Of a stretch of 64,000 nucleotides of DNA, positions 25,301-60,740 are shown piece after piece. The DNA lies in assembly GCA_016169945.1 (NCBI GenBank), contig JADLSH010000318.1:1894501-1958500 (forward strand). The letters are read 5' to 3'. The stretch comes from Trachythela sp. YZ-2020 (lineage: Eukaryota; Cnidaria; Anthozoa; Malacalcyonacea; Clavulariidae). Position 1 is the stretch's first letter; each line of letters starts with the position of its first letter. A model generated the notes under the pieces. It did not search any database, was not told the DNA's origin, and worked only from the letters and a program-made list of their open reading frames with translations. The translations under genes were made by a program, and so were the position numbers.

Positions 25301-28300
25301 CCTACAAAAAGATTAAAGTAACAAGCTTACTTGATCAGCGAAACTTCCCAGTTCAGCGCAAAGAGATTCAAGAAGAGTACTTAGTTCTTTCTATACAAAA
25401 CAAAACAGAGCATTTCAGTCATACTGTAAATATACATACACATTCATAAACATCCTTCCTTCATTCATTGCATTTAATTAATCATGATATGTTACTGTAG
25501 CTAACACTGCTATCTACAGTACTTATATTTATCCTAATCCACCCTGTCAACATTCCAGGGCTGTGGGAGGACACTGGAGTACTCGGAGAAAACCCATGAC
25601 TTTCGGCAAGGTGTTGACAGACTATTTTCACATGAATATCTACTGTAGTCTGGAGCAAGAATCGAACCCACGATCTCAGAGGTGAAAGCCGGTAGCTCTG
25701 ATGACTTTCGAAGCCCTTCCTCCCTTCCCCCCCATCCGTTATTCCCACCCTACATCCCTTTCTTCTTACATCCCTGCCTCTCTTCCTTGTCCTTTACCTG
25801 CATAGCTTTGTCTTCCAACATGTCCTTGAGCTCAGCAAAGACCAGCTTACAATCGTTACAATAATCCACCTAAATTTGAACGGAAAATCCCTGTAATTGG
25901 TGGGTTTCACTGACCGTTACAGGACAGAAGATGGTGTTTAACTTCAGAACTGTTGTCACTTGTAGAAGCAAAAAAATTAAACTACATCTCTCAATTATAT
26001 TTATTTGCCACCACATATAGGACTACTACATATGAAAAGAACTAACATTTTCACACTCTGATAACTGCTGGTTGGCCACCATCTGCTGCATGATAGTCCT
26101 TGGTGAAACCCACTTACATATATCCCAATATATTTTTGAAGGCAAGCAAACCTACTTAAGCGAGTGACTCACCTTCACAGATCTAAGATGAAGGATGTAA
26201 GGATGAGTTTTCAAGTTTTTAAGGAAAAGTTTCTTGATAATTTCTTCTTTGCCAGTTGAAGGACACATTTCAAGTTCTTTGCACAGTTTCTCTGGGTCAG
26301 ACTGAAGATGGAAAATAGAGTAGAATTAGCGATGGTAAATATTGATGGTGGTGGCATGACAGTGGTGATGATAGTGGTTATGATGGAGGTATAGTAGTGA
26401 CGATGGATGAGGTTCTTTAACAGTAGGGAATTGAGCCGATTAATCGGAAAATCAAAGTCTTTGGTCAAAGAACTTCAAAGCAACAACCGTCTTTGAAAGG
26501 TTTTTACAAGGTTTTTACCTCGCTACTTACAATAATCGGCAGATACCGATTAATCGGCCGATAAGTTGAGATAATCGGCCTACAAATAATCGGCCTCAGT
26601 AATCGGTGATTTTCGAAACAATGTGCAAAAAGTCAGCCTTGGGACTATTATTGAGCATGATCCATCCACGTTAACAGTTATAAAAATACAATGCCAATCT
26701 ATTGTCGTATGATTTATTAAAGGTGCTTTTTCATTCACTCTAGCAATGTATTCACAGACTGGAAGATGCCATACTTTAGCCGCCATTGCAGACATTGTAT
26801 ATTAAAGAAAGACTGCATCTGGTGTTTTAAAAATATACAGTACAATTGTTGCAGTTAATGAGCACTTGTTTCTCTAAGTTCTTAATATAATCATGGTCAT
26901 TCATGAAGCAATTTTATAACAATTTAGAACCCTGATCAGGTTCAGTGATGAGGATGGTATTTAATGATAGTCTAACTGTCATAATAAAATTACTGTGGTT
27001 GCATCACTGATCAGGTATTATAATTGAATCAAATCAAAATCCTAAAAACTTACTGTAATTTGTTTCAGTGCAGCAATGATCTGCTTTCCATAGAAGGCAA
27101 CAGCCAACTTGCACTATACAAATTTCCAAAAAAAATTTTAATATTAAGGGGAAGGGTTGGGTAATAGAAGGTTAATACAACAGTGGGTAATACCACAGAA
27201 TACTATACAGAAAGTCATCTCTATATTGTTTTTGCGTAAGCGCTATTCGTCATCGATTCGCCACTCAGCAAGTGCTGCAAGTAAAAGCACTTGCTGAGTG
27301 GCGAATCGATGACGAATAGCGCTTACGCAAAAACAATCTAGAGATGACTTTCTGTATAGTATTCTGTGGTAATACACTTGCATGTCCAAGTCTGTTTATC
27401 CATCACTAAACATACCTCTGCAGCTTTGGAGCCAAGTGTAGCACAGAGATTGTTCATGATATCCAGGACTTTAGTGGAATTATTAGTAAAATAATAATTC
27501 GCCAGTTTCACTGCGCCTTCACATTCCTCACACTTGTCCTAAAACATGGAAAAATAGAAAGTTAGAGTAGTACTTCAATTTGCTTGCTCCTATAAGTGTC
27601 AAAATTTCTGAAGTTGCCCACCATCTGCTGTCGTGTAACACTTATTGAAACCAAGCTTATTATAGTATAAAAAGCTTAAAGCTTTAGGAAACTTACATCA
27701 GCTGACTTCTCATTCTTCTTGTCTTTAGGAGGTGTTAGGATCACAGGGCCAGGCATAATGGGAATTAAAACCTTCTTTGCTTGTGGTTGCAGATGATGTA
27801 AGGCATTCATGATATTGGCAGCTTTCTGAGTCGAATTGCAAAGACCAAGCTCGTCACAAATTTTAGTTGGATCCTGCAAGTGGTACAGTATATATACCGT
27901 TTATATATGATACCTCAAACTTGGAGATCCAGTGTACAGTAGGTAGTATTCTACAATAAGCTGCTGTGGTTTGTGTGTGAACTACCTGAAAAAGACATCC
28001 CAAATGTGGAGGTCCAGTGTACTGTATATTATTGGTATGCTTTCTCCTTGGATAGAGAATACTTGGACTCGAATTACTTAAGACTCGGACAATTTCTAGA
28101 CTTGAAATTTGAAAATTTGAAAAGGGACTTGGACTTGAATGTATAGGACGTGGACGCAAGTTGTGGACTTGATCACAACACTGCTGAAGAGAAGCTGGTT
28201 CTCATATATGGAGAGTCAACTGCTAGAGAGGCGACCTGTACATGTACAACCACTGCATTATCTAGAAATTATATTTCAGAATACTCACATCTAAGCTGGC

Positions 28301-31300: not shown

Positions 31301-34300
31301 ATGTGTAGGACTTGGACGCAAGTTGTGGACTTGATCACAACACTGCTGAAGAGAAGCTGGTTCTCATATATGGTGAGTCAACTGCTAGAGAGGCGGCCTG
31401 TACATGTACAACCTCTGCATTATCTAGAAATTGTTTTATTTATTAACTGTGACTATATTTCAGAATACTCACATCTAAGCTGGCCAATTCATCCAAAACC
31501 AACGGTAGATATTGATCAACATAACTCTTGCACTTAAAACAAGAACAATATGATACATACAATATACTGTATTTATAAATCTATCAAAATATATACTGCG
31601 GATTAATAAAGTGGAACACATACTTGAGCTGCAAAGCTTCCAAATTCACTGCACAGAGATTCTACCGCAGCAATAATTTCTTTCTGCATATCTTTGTCTT
31701 CCAAAAGATCTTTAATTTCGCCAAACACAAGTTTGCAGTCTTCACAATAATCGGCCTAAATTTGAATGAAAGAATAATGTCTACTTCCTTGGAGTCCAAG
31801 TTATATTTGGCCTTTGTACTCAGAAAGGTAATACTAGGCAAATCAGTGTAGATGTAATGGGTGATATTCTTAGATTAATGTGATAATGTCCACACCAGAC
31901 CAGTGAGCAAATTATATTATCCCTCTCTCTAGTTACCTTCACAGATTTAAGAGCAAGGATGTAAGGGTGAGTTTTGAGTTTCTCAACAAAAATTTCCTTC
32001 ATGATTTTCACTTTGCCAGTTGAAGAACACAATTCAAGCTCTTTGCAGAGTTTTTCACTGTCAGACTGAAATTTAAACAGAGAAGAGTCAATGAGAAGAG
32101 TCGATGATGATGATTATGGCGATTGTGGTGATGATAATTGTGGTGGTGAGGATGATGGTAGTGATGATGATGGTAGTGATGATGATGGTAGTGATGATGG
32201 TAGTGATGATGATGGTAGTGATGATGATGGTAGTGATGATGATGGTAGTGATGATGATGGTAGTGATGATGGTAGTGATGATGATGGTAGTGATGATGAT
32301 GGTAGTGATGATGGTGATTATGGTGGTGGTGATCTAGCATATCCCAAAATATTGTTCCTTTTACACTATCATTATGAAATAAATTTTGCCATGATTTAGC
32401 GCTTTGTGTGGCAAACAATTGATGCCGTATAACTACAATGATGTGTAGATGTTACTTCGAGCGTAAAAATAATATATACTCGCATAAGACTTCATTACAT
32501 AAGCGATTTGTTTTACGAAGGTTTTTGCATATGCTTAAAACTCTACACGGGAACAAATGTAAATTATGTGGACTGTTCCCATTTGTAAAAGGAACAACGA
32601 ACGAAAAGGAACAAATTGCATTCACTTGAATTGTTGTTCCATTTGCTTTATGTTCCGCAAAGCGGAACCGTTTAATTATGACTTGAATTAGGAACACGAA
32701 ATCAGTTTGTTTTAAACGTTCATTTATTTAGGATGAAGACGTTCCGTGAAGCGGAACGCATATAATTAGTTAGCGTTCATTTACTATTATTGTTCCGTTA
32801 TAAGTTTAGTTAACAGGAACGATTTGGTCTCTGCATTTCGTTCCCTTTTATTGAACCTGTTTTTGTCTCGTTATATTGTTCATTTTTGTTCCGTTTTATT
32901 GTTCTCTTTGTCGTTCCGCTTAATCGTTCCTTTTCATTTCCATTTTGCATTTATTCTGTACAAACAGAATAAAGTTCAAACACCGAAACCATTAAGCTTT
33001 CATATACATGGAAAGCTTACAATACATACATTATTCAGCTCAGACCCCATTGGGGCTTTTCAGTGACCGATTACATCAAGTATCTAGCTTACCTATATTA
33101 TGTACTTAACCTACATTATTTATTTTTACAATTGTGATATTACTTTCCTAATCTGTCTATCCTAACCCACCCAGTCAACTTTCCCTGTGGAAGGAAACCG
33201 GACTGCCCGGAGAAAACCCACGACTTTCGACAGAGCGTTGACTTACTCTTTTCACATGAGTGTGATAACTAAGAGGTGAAAGGCGCTTGCTCTGACGAAA
33301 GGTTGTCGTCCTATGACGTACCAACATTTAACTTTGCGAATGTTTGAAAGTGGAAAAAGCAACGAGGGAATGGTTGACCAGACGATATTCAAAACAGCCA
33401 AGAGGTATGGTTTTGACAGTGTATACTTCGATGAACAGACTATTAGAATTCTACATCAGACCCATTCTCAAACCCACCTGCGAGTACGTTTTGGTAAATC
33501 GAAATGGTAAACAATTTCAGAAACTTACGGATTTTTTGAGCGTTTTAGTGTTTGAAGCCATTGGAAAGTACATTAACCCAACTAGATACAGACAAATCAT
33601 CGAGACTGAAAGTTCTGAAGTCCTTCTACCAAACGAGCAGAAATGGATATCAGAAGACCAAAAACACAGCTCCAATGTTGCGCGTGTGCATTATCAAAAG
33701 AAACGTTCACGAGAAGTAGCAATTAGAGGACGCTGGTGCATGGAAAAATTAATTGGCTCACAGTGCGGACAGGAGTACAAGGATAATAATAGGAACTCAG
33801 AAAACGGAAAAAAGATTGCCCATTTCCCGCGACGACAAGATAATGTAGATGAGAATAGCCGAAGCAACTCGAAGGAGAAACCATGGAAACGCTGTGCCGG
33901 TATTCGATTCACAGCTGAGGAAGACGAGTACTGTACATTAAGATTGGCATACAAAAGTTTGGATTAAGTTGGTCAAAGATACTGCGGCATCCGCAGTTTA
34001 ATTTCAATCCTTGCCGTGTTCCAAACACTTTGAGAAAGAGGGCGGAAGCCTTAACGTTAGTTTGACTAAAAAGCACTGTCTTACTTATTTCAATTCAATT
34101 CAGTGTAACCAAATTACATGAAAATGAGTGTAAATAAATAAATGAAATTAATTCCAAAATTAAATTCCTGCTTTGATATGACATTTTAAGTGGTTGTGTG
34201 AGGCACTTATTCCTACCAATTATAACCAATCTTTCCATATCTTACAACCTTACTACCATGTTTCTTTGTTGAAAACTTACGGGCTACTAACGACCAGTAG

Positions 34301-37300
34301 CCCGTGGTGATTTTTTAGTCGAGTGTGTCGAGTTAACTTAGTCAGTCCAGAAACTCACGGGCTATGGGCTACCCCATAGTAAACCTAATAAATTCCACGG
34401 GCTACGCACGGGCTACCAGCTTAAATTACGGGCTACCGACGTATGGTAGCCCGTAGTCAATTTTTCTATGTCTCATTTAAACTATAGTAAAAAAACCCTA
34501 ATTTGTTCGGACAATTTTTTTCGAAAGTCTTTCGTAAAGGACGAATTGTAAAAGAGTTTTTGCACAACAAATTTGGTAGAAAAAAATTGATTATGGGCTA
34601 CCATACGTCGGTAGTCCGTGCGTATAGCCCGTGAATTTTATTAGGATTACGATGGGGTAGCCCATAGCCCGCGAGTTTCTGGACTGACTAAGTTAATTCG
34701 ACACACCAACGCATGGTAGCCTGTGCTTGTTGATTTTTAAGCATTTCACAGGAGTAAAGATTCGAGACCACACATAAAAGACCTCTAAATTCAGTTTTTA
34801 TCGACTGTAAACATAGGCCACAATACGCCACATATAGTTTTTCAAATACGCGTATCACACACAATCATTTGCTGTCTGCACACAATTTTACAATACACAC
34901 CTATATGCCGTGCTTTAAAATGTCCATTCGTTGAAATTATTTGAATGAAGTTTGAGCGTATATTGATAGGGCGAAGTTCAATTACTTTTAGGCTCAAATC
35001 GGTTAAACCATTTTTAAGCAGGGCACATTTCCAATAACAACATATGTACACATGCACACACAATATAGTTGTGAGCATTTTCCACACAAATTCACAATGT
35101 TCCAATACACATATTTATGTTATATGTATGGACACAATGTGTCCATATTATATGTTAGATGTATATACACAATCGTTTGCAATAATGGTTCGGGTGCAAC
35201 GTGACAACAAATTAGCACGTTCTCGCAAGAACAAGTAAATTGATCACATAGATGGCTATATGAAACCAACAAGTTCAAAACGAATGTATAGCTACTTTCA
35301 TATGCATTATTGTTTGTGTATTATGGGTACGTCAGACACGAACATTCATACTTCAAGGAACAATTCATTGAGAAAATACTTTATGCGTGTTCTGTGGCTT
35401 GTTTATGCGCTTCTAACGCCCAATGCATGTAATTGCTATGTCGCATAAATACAATGTCTTTACCATGGTCTCCATTTTTTAACGACAGTCCAGTAGGATT
35501 GTGAAGGAACCTCTGGTTGCTCGTCGTGGCTCACGTCGCCTTCGGCCTCTTTAATTTTCTCTGGTTTTCCATTTCTCTTGCAACGGGACATCGACTTGAC
35601 AAAACCAACACGTTTGCTTTTTCACGAAGACTCTGAAGGTGAGGGAATATGTCGGCATTCTGCCTCACGAACTTAGCGATATCAAATACCTCCCGTTTTC
35701 TCCCTGTCAGAAGCATCCAAGCGTCGATGGATGGATTGGCTCTCGTCCAAAAATCTTCTTCCTCTTTTGTTCTCCTCAGCTCGGCGGTGCGCAGTCGTTC
35801 CAAGAAGGAGTGGACGTGCGCTTTGCTCACAGAATTGACCATATTGTATTTGATGAGGGCCCTCACCTTAGCCATATACGTTTGGTCATTAAGAATCCAT
35901 TCAGATTCAGACTTGATAACAGTTCCTGTTCCTCATTTTCCTCCTCGACAGGTCGTGAAGAGGGCTGTTCTTCGTTGACACCTTCAGTAGACGTTGGTGT
36001 GGCACATCTGATTTTGATTTTTCGTCGGCTGATACAGGTGATGACGCAACCACTTCCTGGGCGTGCGGTGGATGAAGGTCGTTCGACGCTTCCTCCGTAC
36101 CAGTTTCGGCTGGATCATCTGAAGAACGACCCGTATCTCTTTCGAATGTTTGCAGACTGTTGGCATCATTTAGGGAGTTGCTGAGTCGCTGGAGTCGTCT
36201 TCAATCGTTGCTCTACCTTGAGCAGCTCTTCGCTTTCTTTTTAGCAGCCTTGATCTAAATTCGGCTGCAAAGCTCTCGTGGATAACCGGAATATTTCCGT
36301 CATCCACGGCGAGGTTATCGGCGCGTAGATCAGCCACGGAAACGCGCTTCAACTGGTTTTTGTTGAACAATGATTCTCCCTCGTTGGCGTTGATCGTTAA
36401 TCGTTGTGCATTGCCAACTTCGTACCATAACTCATGTTGTGGAATGAGATGACGATTGGCGTTGATTTCGTCCGCGACCATGCGAGGCAATCCATCGCGT
36501 GATCGTAGATCCATCTGTCTATTCCTGGTTGTGTGCTTGGAAGCGATGTGGTATTGAAAATCTCAATTCGCCTTTTCACATTTTCGTCCTCTTCGCCGAA
36601 GTTTGGAAGATGGTTGGTCGTTATATAGTAAGGGCTGTTGTTCAAGACCGTCCTCGGGAGAGCATGTTTAACAGCTGTCACCATCCATCCGCCTGGTAGG
36701 ATGCACTTCACAAGGTCTGATTCTGTGGTGCTCGCAGACCATTCATCGACGATAACCAGTTGTGTGTCATTATTAATCATGGCCGCAGAAAACTGTCCCT
36801 CGTTCGTGAGGGAAGCGACGTAACCAGGCGGAATGATGCGATGGAATATATTGGACCACGATGTTTTTCCAGAATCTTTGAGACCGGCAACCACGAGCTT
36901 CTTCCTCTCTTAGTTGAACGCCAGAAAACACTGGTAGAACTTGTTAAGGAACTTAACGCGTACTTCGTCCTCCGAGGAGTTGAGAATTCCTTGCCTAAAA
37001 TATTCTGGACGTGGCGGGGTAGAGTGGTCATACGGGACGAAGGATCGCGGTGAAACTTTGCCAAGTATTGATGCCGAGATGGGACAGGGAACGAAGCTTC
37101 GGGATTTGATGGAAAAACAGTAGCCATTTAATACCTCGATGAGATCGAAGTCGAACGCGATTTGAGGTATAATTTCACAGGTTGGATGTACGAGAAGCTT
37201 TTGCACGGATGAGAAATGTTGCACGAGTTTGTCGCGGAGCATCTCGTTGCCCAAATGTCGATGTAAATAACTTGTGACGTCCATCATTTTGACAAAGGTC

Positions 37301-40300
37301 ACGGTAGCTACACGGGTTTCGCGTAAACGTCAGATCGATAGAGAGCGTGATGGCAGACTTTCATGAGCTTTTCAACGTCGTGTATGGTTGTCGCAACATC
37401 ATTGCTGGACGAGAAGTTGAATAGCACGCGTTTCAGCCAAATCAATGACGAGGCCATCAGATTCCAGTCTTGTCAAAGCTGTAGTCAATTGGTCTCGGAA
37501 ATCTTGTTCGTTTACAATCACGAGACAGCAAGGGACGATGGGAAAGTGGGTGCTTCCCGACTCCAGCAAATTATCTACGTCATCTTCATCGCTCTCGGAT
37601 GACGAATCTTGCGCGTTTTGATAGCAGTACACGTTCAAAACGTTCAGCATTGCCTGTATTGTCGAATTGCTGTGGTCTTTTACAACGTTGAATAGTTGCC
37701 GTGCGGCCGTCTCCATTTCGTTGTTCGTATGGACGTGAGTCCTCACCCGAATCGGCGTGATCTCCGGCTCCATGCCCTCGTTGTGCAACGATGTAAACAA
37801 GCTGTTTTCGTTACACGTATCGCATTCCTTGAAGACAATAAAGAATGCTATGGCTGGGTAACTTTCGGCCGGTGTCGTTTCGACGTCCAACGGTTTGGAT
37901 GTCTTGGCGTTGGACATGACGCTCGTCACGCATGAAAAATAGAATTGCACACCCGCTGTGGACGACAATACTTCGTTGAGGCGCAAACGTTTAATTTGGA
38001 AGCCATTTGGCACCTCGCGAGTTGTATATCTTTAGGACAAACTTTCCAGACGGCACGACAAGCTGCTCGAAATCTACGTGTAGAACGATTGGGCAAATAA
38101 GTATTAAGAATGTTATTTCACAAAATACGAAGAGAATAGCTTTACGCATTTTAATAAAGTACAAGCGATTAAACTTACCAAATTTTAAATGTTTGTAGTC
38201 TTGTAGAATCTAGAGATTTTCGCTGACTAGCAGCCATGATGATTACTTGTACGTGCAGTGCGTTCAACATTAAAGAGCTTTCAGCAAGCGAGCAACGTTG
38301 AATGTTAGGATTTTTTTCAAGGCAGTGCGCTTTTTATAGTTCTTTGCACTTCACGCATGAAAGGAACAATATTTTGTACTTTGGTGATGATGATGATGGT
38401 AATAATGATGATGGTGGTGATGAGGATGGTAATAATGATGATGGTGGTGATGATGATGGAGGTGGTGATGATGATGGTGACAATGATGATAATAATGATG
38501 GTGGTGATGATAATGGTGATAATGATGGTGGTGATGATGATGGTGTGATAATTATGGCGATGATGGATTGGGTTGGTGACAGTTACGGTATTTAATGATA
38601 GTCCAACTGTCATAATAAAATTACTGAGGTTTTATTGCTGATCTGTACTATAATTTAGTCAAATCAAAATCCTAAAAACTTACTGTAATTTGTTCAAGTG
38701 CAGCAATGATCTGCTTTCCATACGTTTTAACAGCTAACTTGCACTAAAAATACAAATTTTCGACTTTCATTTGTCTATAAAAATATTATAACTTAAAGAA
38801 TCCTAATAAAAAATGTGACTTTTACCCCTTCAGAACCAATGCTAAGTCCAGCACAGATATTGTTCAAGATTTCGAGAACCTTTGATGAATTTGTTGAGAC
38901 AAAAGTATGCAATTGGGTTACAGCAGCTTTACACTCATCACATTTGTCCGCCTAAAACAAGGATTTACGATATCAAAAGATACAGTTAGGCTTGTGGAAA
39001 AAACATATCTAAATTTTTTAAACTGGATAGCTCAGTATCAGTTCTAAACTGCTCTTCCCTAGAGGTCCAGTAATGGTTATAAATATCTTATTGATCCAGT
39101 GTTACTACAGGAGGAAACCTAAACTAAACTATTAATTTACACTAGATATATAGTTCCTAAGTTCTGAAGGTATAGTATGTTTACACTTTTGCAATTTGTC
39201 AGACTGATTTTAGGTTTTGCTGAATGTTAATGATGAATAATGTCTGTTGATGTTGTTGTTGTCAGACGATGTTAATGCTTTGTGTCGTTCAAATAGAATG
39301 GTGGATACAAAATCGGCCCAACAAATCACTGTCTAAACATAGCTTAAACGGTTCTCATTAGAGGTTCAACAAGGCCAACCCTTAATTGCAGTGCATTCAA
39401 AGAAAACATCTGGTGTTTGGTAGAGTTAAACAGATTAAAGCACTCTTCTCATATGAGACTGAAACAGCAATTTAAGATACAACTATTCTGCTCTAGGTAA
39501 TTTTAACTCTGAAATAAAATCCGAAATTCCTAATACACACCCCCTTAGCTTTCCACACAAATTCCCTGCAGTGTTCGATAGCCCGACATTCCATGGCCTG
39601 CTTGTAGTTTTCACACCAGTACGAAGGGCCATATGTACATTTCTCCTCACCAAGACGGCTTGGATAAGCACAGGCTAGAAAATAGTTATAGGTATGCAAC
39701 TTAGATATTATATTTTCATAGAGCTATTGCCTTATTTATTTAGTACTATTTTTGTTCAAAATGCAATTAAGGGATTGCTCAATAGTCAATAAAACTTTGA
39801 ATGATGATATTACAAACAATAGGGGGTCCAGTGACAGTGTAGGTAGCGACCGTAGTGTTCTACGATAACAAACCTGCCATGGTTTGTGTCTTTATCCTTC
39901 TTCAAGAGATTGGTGGCTACTAAGGACTACTGTACATGTCTGTAAACCTCTTAATAAAGGGGCTTAATTTGCTTGAAATGTCAAAGTGTATTTAATCTTT
40001 ACCTTTTCCCGGTAGTTCAGACACAAACCAATGCAGCTTATTGTAGAATACTACCTACACTGGACTATATCGTTTAAGATATATTTTCAGGTAGTTCAGG
40101 CACAAAACACGACATGCGCTTATTGCTGAGACTTGCTGATGCAGCAAGCGAGCCTGCAGCGAGCGAGCAAATCAGCAGTTCTAATTTATGTAATGGAGTC
40201 TGCAAGTCTGCAAGGGAAGAATCACTTCCTTTTTTACCACAATGCCTTGCTCGCAACCACAATGCCTATGACCCGTGGTCCTGTCTTATACATTATTCTA

Positions 40301-42571: not shown

Positions 42572-43317
42572 GATGGTTTTATTCGGTGTTTTATTCGTCT
42601 AAAATTGATGTAAAAGAACTACTTCAGACTGTGACACCTGAAACCAAACAAATGTCAAAACAAATGTTTACTGTATATTTATTCCTTGTGACCACGAGAC
42701 AATCACGAGTACTAATTATCGTGACGTATTTCCTCTGCCCATAAGGTGGCCTGATCTTGCATTGCTTTAATCATGCTTTAATTTAAACCGTAGCATAGAA
42801 TACAGGATTTATAGGGATAACTTTAGTTACACTGTATAGCTAGCTCTATCAGTTCTAGGTAAATATCAAGTTGTTTTTTTACTTGTTTTCTTTCTCGACA
42901 TCTGCAGATGACGCAGATCGATGGAATACACGAATACTATTCTTTCTAGAGGTCCAGTAAGGTACATAGAAACCTACTTTGATCTCGCCATGACCATCAG
43001 TCATCACAACTATGGAGCTCTTTCGAACTAAAGTTTAGAAGACCATGAGAACTACTACACAACTCTGCAGCAGTTAAATAGCAGCACTTCATAGTTATGT
43101 TTGGTATTTGGCACCACCGCAATACATTTATTTTGATCTTGTGCAGCTTCTATGGGCTTGAGATACAGTAGGACATGTTTCCTGATCCAAAACCTGATAG
43201 CAAGAGTAAAAGATCAGAGCAACGCAACCTGTTTTAAAACTATAAAAATATTTCCTACAGTCCGTAGTCTTTATCACTAGACTAATTGTTCTTTGTTGTT
43301 TTTTTCCGCAATATTTC

Positions 43318-43616
43318 GCCGGGTTGGCCGATAAAACACGGATACGGATGGCACGGATACGGATACGGATGAGGGGATAAAACACGGATATGGGGATAAA
43401 ACACGGATGAGGGGATAAAACACGGATGGGGGGATAAAACACGGATGAGGGGATAAAACACGGATGAGGGGATAAAACACGAATGGGGGGATAAAACACG
43501 GATGGGGGGATAAAACACGGATATAGGGATAAAACACGGATAAGGGGATAAAACACGGATGGGGGGATAAAACACGGATGGGGGGATAAAACACGGATGA
43601 GGCACAGAATAGGGAA
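43318..43616 (+). repeat. 19-20 bp minisatellite element, copy A
   Basis: GGGTTGGCCGATAAAACACG, then CACGGATACGGATACGGATG, then about 12 units of GGGGATAAAACACGGATGA, ending GGCACAGAATAGGG. Inserted after the kinase N-lobe fragment. Six-residue-period HPCFIPxSVFYP frames are artefacts of the repeat. Confidence 0.93.
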
Positions 43617-43619
43617 TAG

Positions 43620-43794
43620 TATTCAGAAATCTCGCTTCTTTGATGAGTTTGCGCTCCGTGTCGATGTCATCGTCAAAAAACGTTTTCACGACAATCGTTT
43701 CACCGTTCGGTAATTCTGCCGTGAAGACGGTCGAATAGCCTCCGCGACCAATCTCGTCTTTATTCCTTAGCTCGCCAAATTTAAAAACTGCCAC
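43620..43794 (-). pseudogene. Protein kinase N-lobe fragment
   Basis: Starts MAVFKFGELRNKDEIGRGGY, with glycine-rich loop IGRGGYSTVFTA and the ATP-anchoring lysine in ETIVVKTFF, then LIKEARFLN (alpha-C helix glutamate). This is the first third of a kinase N-lobe. The frame then runs directly into minisatellite element A. No C-lobe (HRD, DFG) is visible nearby. Either a truncated pseudogene or one exon of a gene continuing elsewhere. Confidence 0.75.
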
Positions 43795-44061
43795 ACCAGC
43801 TAACTCAGATGATATATAGTTGTTTTGCCCTTTTCAATAATTTTCAAGCCACCAAACATCGGCATTTAATGTCAATGCATTGACATTTTGGTAAGAATAA
43901 GCTGAGATATTACATTTTTGGTAAGCAGACAATAAATGCCGACCGCGTCAGTTTAAACCAAGCGCAACAAAACAACTGTCAGGTAGAACATGAGAAGCCT
44001 TTGCAACACTTGTCATGAGAAGCCTTTGCAACACTTCCCATGTCTTGGCATTTATTCAAAA

Positions 44062-44179: not shown

Positions 44180-44775
44180 TAGAACCCACAATCACCTTAT
44201 TCTAGCTAAGATTTGTATCATATATAAAATATCTTGTCATATATATTAAACTGTATGCAAAAAAAAACATTCAACTTAACATAAATGACAACGCGTACTT
44301 TTTGTGGTTATCAAACTATAAATTCGCTTTGTAATCTGCCGGCGTGTTATGGCGTAGATTATTATGTTGTATATATAAGCGTGGGAATACAACCTCATGA
44401 GAGTGTGGCAAGTTTAATTTTAAGGTTAACTAAAAAGTGTTATCCTTATACAAGTAAAATTCATGTTGCATTATAGAAATAATCTACCGCATAAACAGTG
44501 AAAACAAAGCACTGCGAGTTCAAATTATAATCAGATCCGCATAAACGGAAACTCCTCTGACAAGCAACAAATCTCCATCGGTATATCTGGTTTTCTCAAA
44601 AGTATATTAAATAAAAAGTATTACCTTATCTTCTTCCAACAAATGCCCGCAGAAGTTCGCACTTATTGAATGCGCAGTCTACGTGTATCAGCCTTTAGAA
44701 ACATTGCGATTTACGCTAAGTTATATGCTAATCAACCTTTTATTTGTCAGTACATTTAAATATTATCTCATCCAC
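44180..44775. other. Intergenic, no gene seen
   Basis: AT-rich sequence between two repeat elements. Small frames (44285-44476) show no recognisable domain. Confidence 0.5.
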
Positions 44776-44779
44776 GTAC

Positions 44780-45281
44780 AGAATAGGGAACTCCCTATTC
44801 TGTGCCTCATCCCTGTTTTATCTCCCCATCCGTGTTTTATTCCCTCATCCGTGTTTTATCCCCTCATCCGTGTTTTATCCCCTCATCCGTGTTTTATCCC
44901 CCCATCCGTGTTTTATCCCCCCATCCGTGTTTTTTCCCCCCATCCGTGTTTTATCCCCCCATTCGTGTTTTATCCCCCCATCCGTGTTTTATCCCCTCAT
45001 CCGTGGTTTATCCCCTCATCCGTGTTTTATCCCCTCATCCGTGTTTTATCCCCCCATCCGTGTTTTGTCCCCTTATCCGTGTTTTATCCCCTCATGCGTG
45101 TTTTATCCCATCATCCGTGTTTTATCCCCCCATCCGTGTTTTATCCCCCCTTCCGTGTTTTATCCCCTCATCCGTGTTTTATCCCCATATCCGTGTTTTA
45201 TCCCCCCATCCGTATCCATATCCGTGCCATCCGTATCCGTATCCGTGTCATCCGTATCCGTGTTTTATCCCAACCCTATTT
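44780..45281 (-). repeat. 19-20 bp minisatellite element, copy B (inverted)
   Basis: CCCTATTCTGTGCCTCATCC, then about 20 units of TCCGTGTTTTATCCCCYCA, then CCGTATCCGTATCCGTGTCA and TTTTATCCCAACCC. Same end sequences as copy A in opposite orientation, and more repeat units. Confidence 0.93.
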
Positions 45282-45429
45282 CGCACTGTATAATTTAAAA
45301 TAAACCCTTATCAGCCAAACACAAAAAATACTATTTCGAACAGGATTCTAACTACCACTTTAACATACACTGTTCAGCCTGTAGTTTCAGTTACCACTAA
45401 ACTATACTTGTTTTTTTGTTTTCGCAAAA

Positions 45430-48607: not shown

Positions 48608-50443
48608 TTTTTTTACATGCGTTTTTGTTTAGGTTATATTATTTCCCATATATTATTTTATGAAATATGTAAGTTGTAACTGTCAGCTTGTGAGCTTGTC
48701 ATATGATATGATTGCTGTTACTCATTGTGTCACTAAGCTTGATACAACTCATATTACAATTACAATTACAATTACAATTACAAGTATATACAACGTGGCC
48801 GTGAACTCAATCGCTTAAATCTCAATCGCTACGACGTTTTATATCACAAGCAAACTTAAAGGAAGAAAGGAATTTACTGGATTTTGGTAAGTTTTAATTA
48901 GTAGTTTTTACCTAAATCTACCAACGTTAGAGACTTAGAGTCTGATGCCTTGATCAAGCCGTTTCCGGTCTTTCCTCAACGACTCGACGGGATTTATTAT
49001 AATTTAATACTACATACTGGGATACCTAAAAGTTAGCGAGTGCTGCCTAGCCTGCTTGTTATTCCCACATGTTAACTATAAATTAAAGCACAGCAACTTC
49101 ATAAGTGCAGGGGTCATCCATAGTAATTATAGTATATATATATATATTCAACATTTTCAAAAAGGCAATGACAGATGAAAGATAACATGTGCGTCACTGC
49201 GTCTCAGTGAATTTTAAAGAAAGCAGGAATATATTATATGTTTAACTTCAAAACTTGTTTCCAATTCCCAAGACCACAAAACAATCGTGAAAGAATACAT
49301 GAAATACAGTCACCTTAAAGCATTAAGCATATAATTGACTTAATGTCTTAATTGTCAAGCCACGCTGGCACATGCAGTTCAAAGAATGCACGCGGCTGGA
49401 GCAGTGGAACTAGACGGAAGTGCATTTGACTACCGCAGTACCGGGTGTCCGGGCCGTGTCCCAAAAAAGTACTCGGGTTTGATTCTTAATAACTTTAAAA
49501 CGAGTGTAGCTATTACACTCAAATTAAATGTCATAGAGGAAAAGCTAACTTAGATTTTGATATTTTACAGTTGTATATTTATCAAAAATTGACCGAGATA
49601 TTAATTCGATAGCATATTTCTGATTGTGTCAAAAACTTGTGTAAACGGCGTATCAACTTGTTTTCGCGGGGTATTTTTAAAAATCAATCAAATAATTGCA
49701 TAATTTCAAACGTTAGTATCTCAGTAAACAACGAGCAAAAACTTACATATTATATAATTATATATTAAAATCTAAGTTAGCCTTTCCTCCATCTAATGAA
49801 AGTTATGCGAGTCTAATTAGCCTTTCTCACGCCGCCATTTTTGGGTGGCATTTCGCCAAGCCTGAGAGTCAAAAACCACGTAACGACGACTTTTTATACT
49901 TTTTTGGCGTGTGCCGTTCTAAATTTACTCTGCAAATGGTTAGTTTATTCTTAAAAATTGCTTTTCGCATTGTTTTAATTGTTTACATTCGTTTACGAAA
50001 AACGACTGGCACCCAAAACTGGCGGATATTTTGCGCGTGAGAAAGGCTAATTGCTTCACTCGCTTTAAAAGAGTACTTTTTTGGGAATTGGGATCAGACA
50101 CCCGGAAGATCTTATTTTTGCTCACGCATTGCATTTTAGGTTCTGAGAATTGCATTGTGAGTATATAAAAAAATGAAAATTTCGCCAGCTATCTAAATTA
50201 GACTTCCTTGCTGAATGCTCGATCGCTGCGGCAGAAAGCTAAGCAAGGATGAATGCAATAGCGTTTACTTACAAAATAGACACTTGCCGTTTTAAAATTG
50301 TATGTTATTGACTTATTGTGCACTATGAAGTATGAATATTAACTTTATTTTACTGACACTCCTGCGGCCTTCCCTCGAAATTTATACTTGAATTATTTTT
50401 AGGTTTGCTACAGTTGAGCTACTGTATATGAGACTATGTCACT

Positions 50444-53184
50444 ATGAGTTCTGCAGGTAGCGGTGGCCGCGACCGGGACAAAAATCGCAAATATATATCT
50501 GGGGCAGCGAAACGCAAGGCAAGGGAAAAACGAGTTTCACAGGAAAGCGAAGTTTTGAGTAAAGTGCCAAAAATCTTAGAACTGTTTTTTCCCAAGAGCA
50601 GCGGTGTAAATGCATCTGGTAGCAACGTAGATGTGGTTTCGGACTTGCAACCTCAGCAAAACGATGAAGGGGATTCTGGTGAGTCCAACCGATTTCTACT
50701 GCGGCGATGTCGACAACAATCTCGACAGATTCTGTACCTCAGCCACCTGAAATTTTCTGCCGAATCTCAGATATCTGATGATCCGGCCAGTTCCACTGAT
50801 GCATCAGCATATTCCTGTGATTTGGGGTTTTGGCCTGCTAGTGTTTCGGACAGAATGAGGGAATACTGGGCAGCAAAAGGAAGCAGTCAATGTAGAAACT
50901 CGGATGCAGATTTCAGCGCCTCTTCTACCAGATTTGAGGGAGAGAATTACAACCGGCAATGCCAGAAAAGCTTGTTTACGTATACGCATGCGCTCACAAA
51001 ACAGCAACATTGTCGAACATGGCTCTGTTACTCGCCATCTAAACATTCAGTGTTCTGCTTTGCATGTAAACTGATGAGCGACAGCTTAGTTTTTGGAAAG
51101 CAGGGATACAATGATTGGAAGCGCGCTTCTCAATCAATTCCACGTCACGAGAAAAGTGCAGTGCACAGAGAAGCCATGATTAAGCTATTACAACGCAGTG
51201 ATGCTGGCTGCCGTATTGATGTGGAACTGGTTAGACAAGCCAACGCGGAGCGCGATTATTGGCGTGCTGTGCTTAAACGGATAACAGAAACTATCCGTTA
51301 CCTATCGGAACGTGGTTTGCCATTTCGTGGTTCAGATGAAGTTATCGGATCGCCCACAAACGGCAATTACTTAGGCACGTTGGAACTGATTGCCTTGTTC
51401 GATCCATTTCTAGAGCAACACATCAACCATAACGCAAACAAGGGACGGGGTCACACTTCCTATCTGTCGAAAACCATTTGCGAAGAGTTCATCCATTTGA
51501 TGGCAAATCGTGTGCGCGAGTATATCATTACGGAAGTCAAGTCCGCCAAGTATTTCTCGGTTTCTGTGGACTCGACTCCCGATATTACTCATGTTGACCA
51601 ACTCACCTGTATTCTTCGGTACGTTTTGCCATCGGGTCCTGTTGAACGATTCTTAACCTTCCTCGACATGCAAGGTCACAGTGGAAAAGAACTAGCGGAA
51701 AGCCTGTTAAAGTTCTTAGAAACCCATGACATCGATGTTGCTGATTGCCGAGGCCAGTCGTACGATAATGCGAGCAATATGAGTGGGAAATATAATGGTA
51801 TGCAGGCCATTATTCGACAACAATGTAACCTTGCTGAGTATGTTCCCTGTGCCGCACATTCCCTAAATCTGGTTGGTCAGTCAGCAGTAGGTTGTTGCCA
51901 GCTGGTCGTTGGATTCTTCAATTTCCTCCAACGATTATATTCCTTTTTTGTTGCTTCAACCCATCGTTGGAAAATTCTGATTGATCAACTTGCAAGCAAA
52001 GGCCGACCAACAGTCAAACGGATGTCTGATACTCGCTGGTCGGCACGCGCAGACGCTACAAAGGCTCTAGTCGAGGGATATGACGAGATTAACGCTGCTT
52101 TAGAAGAAATCGCAGATGACGTTGAGGAGAAACCCGAAACCCGAGAAGAAGCTCGTGGATATGCCTCTTATATGAACCGACTTGAAACCGGAATTCTTGC
52201 AGCAGTGTGGCACTATATCCTGCATCGTTTTCACGAGAACAGTCAAGTCCTTCAATCAGCCGACCAAGATCTCAACTCCGCCGTCGCAATTTATGAATCC
52301 CTCATCGAATTTATTCGCAAGCTGCGGGAAAGATATGAAGAGTTCGAGGCCAAAGGGAAAAAGCTCAGTGAATGTGACCATTTCGTAGAAGATGTTAGAC
52401 GCGTGCGTCAACGAAATCGACGTTACGACGAGCCAGGATCAGCGCCTGAATTGCCACAGACTCCAGCCGAAAAATTCCGCACGGGTACGTTCCTGGTCAT
52501 AGTCGATAGCCTGGAAACTGAGCTACGGTACGGCGTACACTGGCATTTCTGAAAGGTTTGGCTTCCTGCGAGTGCTCAAAGACCTCCCAGTTGAACAAGT
52601 AATCCAAAATGCAAAAAACCTGCAACAGTCATACCCTACAGATTTAGAAGCTAGTCTGTCTGACGAATTGATACAGTCAATTTGCCAAGAAATCATTAGG
52701 AGCGACTACACCTTCATCTGTTCCTGCAAATTCTTCAGCCCAAATCGACACATTCTCTGACGAGTCTGATGATGATGATGATGATGACCTAGCTGTCATA
52801 ACTAAAGATGATGAAGACGTCAGATTGAACGTGGAATCGTTGGAAATGCGCATATACAAGCTCATTGTGGCGAACAATCTGGAAACTGTATTTCCAAACA
52901 CTGTCATCGTATTCCGCATTTATCTAAGTCTTATGATTTCGAACTGTTCTGGTGAACGGTCGTTTTCGAAACTCAAGTTGATAAAGAATCAGCTCCGATC
53001 ATGCATGACACAGAAGCGACTAAATAGCCTTACTCTTTTGAGCATAGAAAACGACCTTCTGCGTAAGATTGACATGCCGTCGCTAATTAACGATTTTGCT
53101 CTAAAAAATCGCGTAAGCATGATGTATACAAGGCATCTGCAGAATGAAACTTCAATTACAAGTACGTTACATCATGTATATTGA
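50444..53184 (+). pseudogene. hAT transposase (TTF-type zinc finger / ZMYM-like), two frameshifts
   Basis: The main frame 50444-52552 (702 codons) begins MSSAGSGGRDRDKNRKYISG. A TTF-type zinc finger covers HCRTWLCYSPSKHSVFCFAC and DWKRASQSIPRHEKSAVHRE; then a DUF4371-like part (GNYLGTLELIALFDPFLEQH), RNase-H-like core (FSVSVDSTPDITHVDQLTCI, DCRGQSYDNASNMSGKYNGM) and CAAHSLNL. A frameshift near 52525 and another near 52690 separate the hAT dimerisation end NCSGERSFSKLKLIKNQLRS and TLLSIENDLLRKID (to 53184). About 910 codons overall, typical for the family. Lacks visible introns. Confidence 0.92.
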
Positions 53185-58379: not shown

Positions 58380-58499
58380 AATCAAAACAAAGATTTGGAA
58401 AAATTGAATGAAAATGTTTTGACAAACACAATAAACACATCAACTATATTGTTACATGATAGCATAATCATGTAATGTTTCCTATATATAATATCTATA

Positions 58500-60740
58500 T
58501 TTGGAATTAGAAGGTCTATTATCATAAAAAATAAGTTATTTTACTCGGGAGATAAAGAAAATTATAAAATATATCGAAATAAAATAACAAAACTAACACG
58601 TATTAGTAAAAAAACATATTATCATGAGTATTTTAACAATAATCTCAAAAATATGAAAAAAACTTGGGAAGGTATTAATAATTTGATAAATCGCAAAAAG
58701 AAGCATAAAATGATTACAAAATTGAAGTGTCCGAACAAAAATGAGTTCATTAGTAATCCAAAAGATATCCCTGACGTTTTGAATAAGTATTTTTCCACTA
58801 TAGGACAAAAACTGGCATCAAAATTGCCTAATTCTCATACACATTTTAGTCATTACTTAAAAACTAAAAACTATTCAAGTTCGTTTTATTTTAATCCTGT
58901 CACCCCTGTTGAAGTTGAATTTGAAATCGCCTCATTATGTGTTAGCAAATCTGTTGGACTATATTCTTGTCCTACACGTTTACTGAAATGTATAAAGCAA
59001 CAAGTATCTTGGCCATTGGCAGAACTCATGAATTCTTCAATCCTAAGTGGAACGTTTCCGTCAAAACTAAAGCATGCTAAAGTAGTTCCAATCTACAAAA
59101 CTAATGATGAAACCGATCCAGGAAACTACCGACCAATTTCATTACTTTCTAATTTTAATCGAATTTTTGAAAAATTAATGTGTAAAAGACTTCAAAGTTT
59201 CTGTGACAAATATAAGATTCTTTATGAAAAGCAATATGGGTTTCGAGCAAATCATTCAACACAACATGCTGTTGTTGATATTGTAAATAATATCCACAAC
59301 AACATGGACAAAGGCTTATTTTCGTGTGGTGTCTTCATTGACCTCAAAAAAGCGTTTGACACAGTTGATCACTCCATACTTCTAAATAAATTAGAACACT
59401 ATGGTATTCGAGGTATTATAAATAACTGGTTTCAGTCTTATTTAACTGATCGAATACAGACAGTTCAAATTGGACAAAATATATCACCAAAAGAAACAAT
59501 TAGATTTGGAGTTCCACAGGGCTCAGTCTTGGGACCTCTACTCTTCCTCATTTATATAAATGATATTCATACATCATCCAAAGTATTACAATTTTATTTG
59601 TTTGCTGACGACACAAATTTATTATACGCAGATAGAAAATTAAAAAATCTTGAAGCAGTAATTAATCAAGAACTGGTGGAGTCTGCAAATGGTTAAATGC
59701 AAATAAATTGACTATTAATTTAAATAAAACAAACTATGTTATTTTTCGTTCCAATAAAAACGCGTTAACTATCAACCTTGTATAAAATTATTTGATAATA
59801 GAGCAAACAAATCAATTGAAATTGAGTGTAAAGAATTTGTAAAATATTTAGGACTTATTATTGATAAAACTTATCATGGAAACACCACATAGAAAATATT
59901 GCTTCTAAAATAAGTAAGTCAATAGGAATAATCACGAGACTTAGGCATTTTGTGCCTCTCTCAACTCTACTTAATATATATCGTAGCTTAATTCAACCAT
60001 ATCTAACGTATGGTATAATTGTTTGGGGCCGAGCGTCAAAGGCGTATTTAAATAAGTTACTTGTTCTTCAGAAACGAGTTTTGCGGCTAATGAACTTTAA
60101 AGGTTATAAAGAACATGCCATCCCTCTCTTCACTAATTTAAACGTTTTACCCTTGAATATGATTTATTATAAATCGGTGTGTAATTTGATGTATGATGTC
60201 TCTAACAGCTCTTGTCCATCAACAATCTCCGATTATTTTAATCGTTCCAGAAACATTCATACACATAAAACTAGGCATTGTGCATCTAATAATTTTTACA
60301 TTGAATATTCAAGACTAAATAAATTAAATGCCTCTTTTGCGAGATCCGGTGCGAAAATATGGAACAATATACCTGGCAATGTACGCGAATTAGGGAAAAA
60401 GAAATTTAATAAGGCATTGCAAAATTCTTTACTTACAATTCTTGAGCTGGAGGATGATTATGTTGATGTCCCTGTATTAGTTCAATTAATGGCTAAACAA
60501 TAGGATTTTTATCTTTACGAATAGTTTCTATTTTTTTGGCTTGATGATTGGGAAAGTTTCTAATTAAAATCGTTACTTAGGTTATATCTTAATAATAATG
60601 TGTGTTAATAAATTATTATAATTTTTCCTTTTTTTCTTTGTCATCCGCCTCGACTAGCTTTTTAGCTATTAGCGGATGACATTATCTACTCTTGTATATA
60701 GTCATTTTTGTATTAATAAATTTGTATTGTATATAGCAGA
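58500..60740 (+). mobile_element. LINE (CR1-like) reverse transcriptase with 3' UTR
   Basis: The main frame to 59696 includes KTWEGINNLINRKKK, HAKVVPIYKTNDETDPGNYR, ISLLSNFNRIFEKLM, FIDLKKAFDTVDHSILLNKL, GVPQGSVLGPLLFLIYINDI and YLFADDTNLLYADR (catalytic FADD intact). Frameshifts near 59680 and 59860 lead to the C-terminal frame 59952-60503 (YRSLIQPYLTYGIIVWGRAS). The 3' UTR has a hairpin TCATCCGCCTCGACTAGCTT / GCGGATGA and a TTGTAT-type tail ending at ~60738. The endonuclease domain expected between OTU and RT is absent. Confidence 0.92.

What the first reader, a model, noticed from the sequence alone, without database searches (positions are those of the whole stretch)
32334..38380. Possibly undescribed DNA element: TIRs, tyrosine recombinase-SANT fusion and SF3 helicase in convergent genes
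A 6-kb insertion has 17-bp perfect inverted termini, a Crypton-like tyrosine recombinase followed by a Myb/SANT segment on one strand and a parvovirus NS1-like SF3 helicase on the other. Cryptons have a recombinase but no TIRs or helicase; Mavericks/Polintons are 15-20 kb with a DDE integrase; parvovirus insertions lack a recombinase. The combination suggests a self-replicating, recombinase-integrated mobile element or virus relic of a lineage I cannot name.
Basis: partly seen in the sequence, partly recalled or inferred. Interest (0 to 1): 0.9.

Follow-up and report, generated by a model that had tools for sequence, protein, structure and literature searches.

The report
Coral transposon with recombinase and helicase
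The sequence holds a decayed copy of an unusual coral-type mobile DNA element that pairs a cut-and-join enzyme (tyrosine recombinase) with a virus-like copying helicase; other copies in the same genome are nearly identical to each other, so the family seems to have moved recently, and it looks like a plasmid that lives in an animal's chromosomes.

Summary
In detail: 32345-38376 is a 6-kb element with 17-bp perfect inverted ends, a tyrosine recombinase (YR) with a Myb/SANT domain on one strand and an SF3 helicase on the other, both decayed here. The ends are att-like: the inverted arms lie inside a directly repeated 6-bp core, GGTSAT. A pair of related sites (C62, C108) differs by an 8,653-bp member placed exactly at that core, inside the end of a resident element, with the core on both sides. 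17 of 24 end flanks are simple repeats. A pentamer array (GTTCC/GGAAC) marks the YR side only. Helicase copies on three contigs keep open frames and differ by dS 0.01 or less. Most likely this is a two-gene transposon that replicates as a circle with an E1/NS1-class helicase and integrates by YR recombination; circle and replication are inferred. Ten literature searches listed no such element; Repbase could not be searched.

The parts
32328..32333 (+). left core GGTGAT (crossover direct repeat)
   Evidence: matches the YR-side end pattern with 0 mismatches; seen without the core in the pattern
32334..32344 (+). YR-side end, outer part (CTAGCATATCC), shared by other copies
32345..32361 (+). 17-bp inverted arm, YR side
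32362..32960 (.). array of 16 GTTCC/GGAAC pentamers, shuffle mean 0.67 (possible origin or binding array)
32989..33298 (.). insertion/deletion scar with a repeat read as SINE-like (repeat match 33158-33298), in place of the YR 5' half
33280..33510 (+). YR piece with the first Arg-bearing motif (KGCRPMTYQHLT)
   Evidence: 33295-33399 matches homologues
33332..33967 (+). YR catalytic part (PTRYRQ ... DQKHSS..AR..Y) and start of the Myb/SANT domain; frame-shifted against the piece before
33919..34065 (+). remainder of the Myb/SANT domain, other frame
34278..34740 (.). hairpin-rich stretch between the convergent genes (82-bp arms, 93%); similar repeats in the C50 and C240 copies
35531..35932 (-). 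C-terminal part of the helicase protein
   Evidence: P0164 matches 35478-35896 in two pieces at 32-34%
36397..36909 (-). SF3 helicase P-loop domain
36910..37329 (-). helicase, part before the P-loop; TAA stop at 36910-36912
37399..38031 (-). helicase N-terminal region, fold unresolved
   Evidence: open frame; same region of other copies aligned; model failed
38360..38376 (-). 17-bp inverted arm, helicase side
38377..38382 (-). helicase-side end, outer part (TACTTT on the + strand), shared by other copies
38383..38388 (+). right core GGTGAT
   Evidence: 0-mismatch match of the helicase-side pattern

Best explanation
One mobile element with two genes. (1) A zinc-finger-like / tyrosine recombinase / SANT protein binds the inverted arms and recombines a 6-bp core (GGTSAT), so that the element leaves or enters the chromosome as a circle whose junction is helicase end - core - YR end. 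(2) It inserts at matching cores, often in GAT/GGT simple repeats or at the end of a resident copy, which builds tandem copies. (3) An SF3 helicase of the papillomavirus E1 / parvovirus NS1 class unwinds the circle, probably from the pentamer array at the YR end, so that host polymerases copy it. Shown: linkage of both genes, ends, core, a member present or absent exactly between two cores, tandem junction, many simple-repeat flanks, near-identical copies, selection on both proteins between clades. Inferred: the circle, the direction (insertion rather than precise loss), the helicase's role, the array as origin.
For: Genome-wide linkage: 49 of 95 merged helicase loci have YR within 10 kb; with both sets placed at random the mean is 0.3 and the largest of 2000 trials 4 (places). 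In a direct sample, 11 of 16 stretches of 2.4 kb downstream of helicase copies hold YR, and 3 of 4 nine-kb regions show the window's convergent order. Ends: 23 helicase-side ends against 0 for the reversed pattern; 6 YR-side ends against 1, up to 3 mismatches. Core found without being in the pattern: 5 of 5 YR-side and 4 of 6 helicase-side ends read GGTSAT. Sites with and without a member: C62:6861742 against C108:62420-71073, flank 99.0% over 518 bp with 93 identical bases beside the core, resident element 99.5% over 2160 bp, 98.8% over 2960 bp further out. Tandem junction with a single core. Flanks: 17 of 24 at or above the 95th percentile of window 80-mers for simple repeats. Array at the YR side, none at 4 helicase sides. 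Recent: helicase dS 0.00-0.01 among C240, C108 and C16; between clades dS saturated with dN 0.46-0.64. YR fold; E1-class helicase.
Confidence: 0.85

Rival explanations
1. Two independent elements, a Crypton-like YR transposon and a helicase-bearing element or viral insertion, lie side by side by chance in this window.
For: 46 of 95 helicase loci and 51 of 99 YR loci have no partner within 10 kb.
Against: 49 of 95 linked against 0.3 expected; similar order and distance in sampled copies; the C108 member that lies between two cores holds both genes (helicase C108:63369, YR C108:68485).
Confidence: 0.03
2. An endogenous small DNA virus (parvovirus, CRESS or Polinton-like) that carries or has lost capsid genes; the integrated form is a provirus and particles may be made with a helper's capsid.
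For: SF3 helicase of viral type; YR plus S3H is known among Polinton-like viruses (PMC4642659, passages); nimaviruses use YR to enter telomere-type repeats (PMC10871703, passages).
Against: Two element regions list no other unspliced frame of 120 aa or more apart from antisense and simple-repeat frames (small spliced exons would be missed); pattern scans of viral contigs found no relative; no conserved HUH motif.
Confidence: 0.12
3. A DDE cut-and-paste transposon: the 17-bp ends are ordinary TIRs and GGTSAT is a target site duplication.
For: Perfect short inverted ends; a 6-bp repeat at both ends.
Against: No unassigned frame of DDE size in the two regions listed; the core is a conserved sequence rather than a random duplication and lies outside asymmetric end parts; tandem copies share a single core; a YR is present.
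Confidence: 0.03

Closest known systems
Crypton DNA transposons (PMC3212892, passages seen)
   Same: Integration enzyme is a YR; fungal and oomycete ones have 4-6 bp terminal direct repeats; circular intermediate proposed; present in cnidarians.
   Different: Described without TIRs (the mariner-fused MarCry, with 16-bp TIRs, apart); animal Cryptons without terminal repeats or a C-terminal domain; the word helicase does not occur in the paper. Here: inverted arms, SANT domain, SF3 helicase, pentamer array.
Polinton-like viruses and virophages with YR (PMC4642659, passages seen)
   Same: YR and superfamily 3 helicase occur in this group of eukaryotic elements; circular donor suggested.
   Different: They carry capsid and packaging genes and are larger (14-40 kb in the abstract of PMC12220804, listing); here two genes in 6-9 kb.
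Endogenous nimaviruses of crustaceans (PMC10871703, passages seen)
   Same: YR typically with a C2H2 zinc-binding part; insertion into simple repeats.
   Different: Giant virus genomes (300-360 kb for pemoniviruses); whether the YRs are related was not tested here.
Parvovirus NS1 / papillomavirus E1 replication proteins
   Same: SF3 helicase domain by Pfam profile.
   Different: No conserved HUH motif, no capsid frame seen in two copies, and a YR partner.
Prokaryotic integrative plasmids (recalled)
   Same: Replication protein plus YR, att-type site, tandem integration.
   Different: Eukaryotic, SANT and E1-class helicase; comparison not tested.

Membership tests
Crypton | Encodes a tyrosine recombinase | tested here: met
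Crypton (fungal and oomycete groups) | 4-6 bp direct repeats at the termini | tested here: met
   GGTSAT core at both ends, with one-base exceptions
Crypton | No terminal inverted repeats | tested here: not met
   17-bp perfect arms; the arm also occurs at other copies' ends
Crypton (animal groups) | No C-terminal domain after the YR | tested here: not met
   Myb/SANT in 15 of 31 members at E<=1
Crypton | YR sequence groups with Crypton YRs in a tree | not tested
   no Crypton sequence was held; only Pfam and PDB searches were made
Polinton-like virus / virophage | Capsid and packaging genes | tested here: not met
   unspliced ORF lists of two copies with open helicase frames
Polinton-like virus / virophage | SF3 helicase and YR in some members | tested here: met
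Parvoviridae (endogenous) | HUH endonuclease domain before the SF3 helicase | tested here: not met
   by motif only: no conserved HxH column in 39 proteins, one of 39 with a hydrophobic-H-hydrophobic-H run in the first 350 aa; fold of that part unresolved
Parvoviridae (endogenous) | SF3 helicase of NS1 type | tested here: inconclusive
   Parvo_NS1 in 7 of 39, PPV_E1_C in 30 of 39 at E<=0.05
DDE TIR transposons | DDE transposase between TIRs | tested here: not met
   no unassigned frame of that size in the two regions listed
Already named in Repbase or Dfam | a matching consensus entry | not testable with these tools
   neither database is on hand

The most novel reading that the evidence does not exclude
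A lineage of animal 'integrative plasmids': capsid-less circles copied from a pentamer-array origin by an E1/NS1-class helicase and stored in simple repeats by a zinc-finger-YR-SANT recombinase, exchanging helicase and recombinase modules between subfamilies; either an ancestor or a stripped descendant of small DNA viruses, and recently active in what is probably an octocoral genome.
Probability: 0.5. Interest if true: 0.92.

Novelty: new variant of a known kind. Interest (0 to 1): 0.82.

Why it matters
Animal YR DNA transposons are described as coding for little beyond the recombinase (PMC3212892, passages). A many-copy, recently moving animal family that joins a YR to a viral-type replicative helicase would be a new route of 'copy then paste' transposition, a natural site-specific integration system (arm-core-arm site, resident att sites, tandem growth) in animals, and a possible bridge between transposons, plasmids and small DNA viruses. 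The simple-repeat flanks and two clades with different flanking repeats make the question of what sets YR target choice testable. The near-identical copies mean that circles can be looked for in existing long reads.

Tried and rejected
Viral contigs: four pattern scans, 7, 5, 71 and 6 stretches matched a pattern and none encoded a relative. PHROGs: weak matches to one family of unknown function and to DNA primase families. Phage records: no match. PDB by sequence with two window pieces: none; with the helicase alignment only matches of E 0.28 and worse, mostly P-loop proteins. Helicase structure: failed, pLDDT 41, not used. Rfam on 31800-38900: none at the gathering score. Contig lengths in the protein lists: 5 shared between 120 YR and 162 helicase contigs, weak evidence. 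Idea that 34278-34740 is a foldback insertion private to this copy: dropped, similar repeats lie in the C50 and C240 copies. A solo 17-bp match at C271 (L008): its outer flank fits neither end type, treated as chance. Literature: ten searches; I saw titles and abstract starts of the papers listed (for example 25 of 59), and passages of five papers; none described a YR + SF3 two-gene transposon. Only open-licence PMC papers are held.
Full report
What is there. The window lies at C87:1894501-1958500 of a 578-Mb genome in 396 contigs. Between simple-repeat flanks, 32345-32361 and 38360-38376 are perfect 17-bp inverted arms. On the + strand lies a tyrosine recombinase with a Myb/SANT domain, on the - strand an SF3 helicase; both frames are broken. 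The YR's 5' half is gone: left-end DNA shared with another copy stops near 32988, homology with the C50 copy resumes at 33298, and in between lies a repeat, SINE-like by my reading, also present near 1566-1733 and 25530-25635. The window copy is 85.5-90.3% identical to the C50 copy in the three main pieces: an old, dead copy.

One element, not two. The own genome gave 140 helicase matches and 140 YR matches, both lower bounds. Merged into 95 and 99 loci, 49 of 95 helicase loci have a YR within 10 kb; by the nearest YR, 23 lie downstream on the opposite strand as in the window, 18 downstream on the same strand and 8 upstream. In 7 of these 8 another helicase match lies before that same YR, as expected of tandem copies; the eighth (C2:435574) also has a YR 3.7 kb downstream. 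With both sets placed at random on one line of the genome's length the mean is 0.3 and the largest of 2000 trials 4 (this ignores clustering of repeats). In a direct sample of 16 stretches of 2.4 kb, set only by distance from helicase copies among the best matches, 11 held a YR: 7 convergent and 4 on the same strand. Of four nine-kb regions, C62, C50 and C240 show the window's order; C267 has a weak same-strand YR match. So there are at least two arrangements: a convergent clade, to which the window belongs, and a same-strand clade (C2, C22, C38, C284).

Ends and core. Reading inward, the YR-side end is about GGTSAT + [AC]TAGCATATCC + CAAAATATTGTTCC and the helicase-side end about ATSACC + AAAGTA + CAAAATATTGTTCC. 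In that call the core was not part of the pattern: 5 of 5 YR-side ends and 4 of 6 helicase-side ends read GGTSAT, two read one base off. Scans with the core in the pattern and up to 3 mismatches found 6 YR-side ends (reversed pattern 1) and 23 helicase-side ends (reversed pattern 0). Both ends therefore carry the same core as a direct repeat just outside asymmetric end parts. In C87 (the window) and C277 both cores read GGTGAT; in C22 they differ at one base; in C320, if its two ends belong together 15 kb apart, also at one base; in the C240 tandem the YR-side core is two bases off. At C133 a YR-side end faces the wrong way. Copies of the same-strand clade begin at a related but different end (GCCAAAGTCGAAAAT).

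Sites with and without a member. At C62:6861742 a flank meets the core and a resident element. C108 has the same flank (99.0% over 518 bp, 93 identical bases beside the core; 98.8% over a further 2960 bp), then the core, then an element of another subfamily, then the core again and the same resident element (99.5% over 2160 bp); core to core it is 8,653 bp. The simplest reading is insertion precisely at the core of a resident copy, giving a head-to-tail pair with a single core between; precise loss from C62 is the alternative and needs the same recombination. The C62 flank occurs twice on that contig. Whether C62 and C108 are alleles or duplicated segments cannot be told. On C240 tandem copies are instead separated by about 300 bp of mostly GATGGT-type repeat.

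Flanks. 17 of 24 end flanks reach the 95th percentile of a simple-repeat index of 2000 window 80-mers: 13 of 17 in the convergent clade, in GAT/GGT repeats, of which only 2 of 5 YR-side flanks; 4 of 7 in the same-strand clade, in GATAAGG or GGAA repeats. Flanks under 60 bases and near-identical ones were dropped, and related loci remain, so the 24 are not independent.

Array. GTTCC/GGAAC pentamers, which also occur in the arms, number 16 in the 600 bp inside the window's YR-side arm (shuffle mean 0.67). Of six such stretches at YR-side ends (window, L001, L005, L007, L009, L042) five exceed all 500 shuffles; L005 does not, its array lying further in past about 640 bp of other DNA. The L042 stretch was set after seeing its sites. 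A seventh, L043 1-600, also exceeds them, but no end was found there. Four helicase-side ends have none in 600 bp. Some sites form inverted pairs. I read this as an origin or regulatory array; that is inference.

Age and selection. The C240, C108 and C16 helicase copies keep a 919-921 aa open frame and differ by dS 0.00-0.01; between clades dS is saturated while dN is 0.46-0.64. YR pairs between C50 and other convergent copies give dN/dS 0.05-0.16; among very close pairs the ratio scatters, up to 1.19 for YR and 2.21 for helicase, on few changes. The YR of C62 is close to that of C240 (dS 0.07) although their helicases are saturated: modules seem to have been exchanged between subfamilies. The second copy on C108 has the C62-type helicase region (99.5%) and a YR close to that of C62 (dS 0.06) and of C240 (dS 0.08).

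Mechanism. Shown: linkage, ends, core, presence or absence of a member exactly between cores, tandem junction, repeat-rich flanks, recent copies, selection between clades. Inferred: excision or copying as a circle; unwinding by the helicase from the array; use of host polymerases, since two element regions list no other unspliced frame of 120 aa or more except antisense and simple-repeat frames.

Known relatives. Cryptons (PMC3212892, passages) share the YR, in fungi and oomycetes the 4-6 bp direct repeats, and the proposed circle, but are described without TIRs, and animal ones without terminal repeats or a C-terminal domain. Polinton-like viruses can carry YR and S3H but have capsid genes (PMC4642659, passages). 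Nimaviruses enter telomere-type repeats with a YR that typically has a C2H2 part (PMC10871703, passages). PMC11071296 (passages) reports a meldvirus with YR and a primase-SF2 helicase. PMC5013282 (passages) covers parvovirus-like sequences, one cnidarian among 118 species. Ten literature searches listed no element of this make-up. I file it as a new variant of YR DNA transposons; a curator may well give it its own superfamily.

Noticed in passing
L040, L042, L052, L020: Subfamilies share a close YR (dS 0.06-0.08) but carry deeply diverged helicases, which points to module exchange between elements.
   Followed up: partly
G000:C273:1640001-1640576 (-): A YR match of 75% lies in an open frame of 2039 aa, which may be a fusion or a repeat-made frame.
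   Followed up: no
L026, L031, L035, L039 (helicase-side flanks): Members of the same-strand clade sit in GATAAGG/GGAA repeats and have a different end sequence.
   Followed up: partly
L063, L064 (C277 and C22 helicase-side flanks): Both elements share a non-repeat outer flank and a similar YR-side flank, so the two loci may be copies of one insertion or of one repeated target.
   Followed up: no
50432-52552 (+): 706-aa frame with DUF4371 and a weak zinc finger match, a hAT-like transposase relative (the hAT link is recalled).
   Followed up: no
58476-60503 (+): Reverse transcriptase RVT_1 in 58476-59696 and a following frame, a non-LTR type element by my reading.
   Followed up: no
1566-1733, 25530-25635, 33158-33298: Dispersed repeat, SINE-like by my reading, 80-91% alike in its main piece.
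   Followed up: partly
43128-43833 (-) and 44611-45303 (+): Tandem repeat that reads VLSPHPCFIPPSVFYP in several frames, once continuing what looks by eye like a kinase-type exon (no Pfam match).
   Followed up: no
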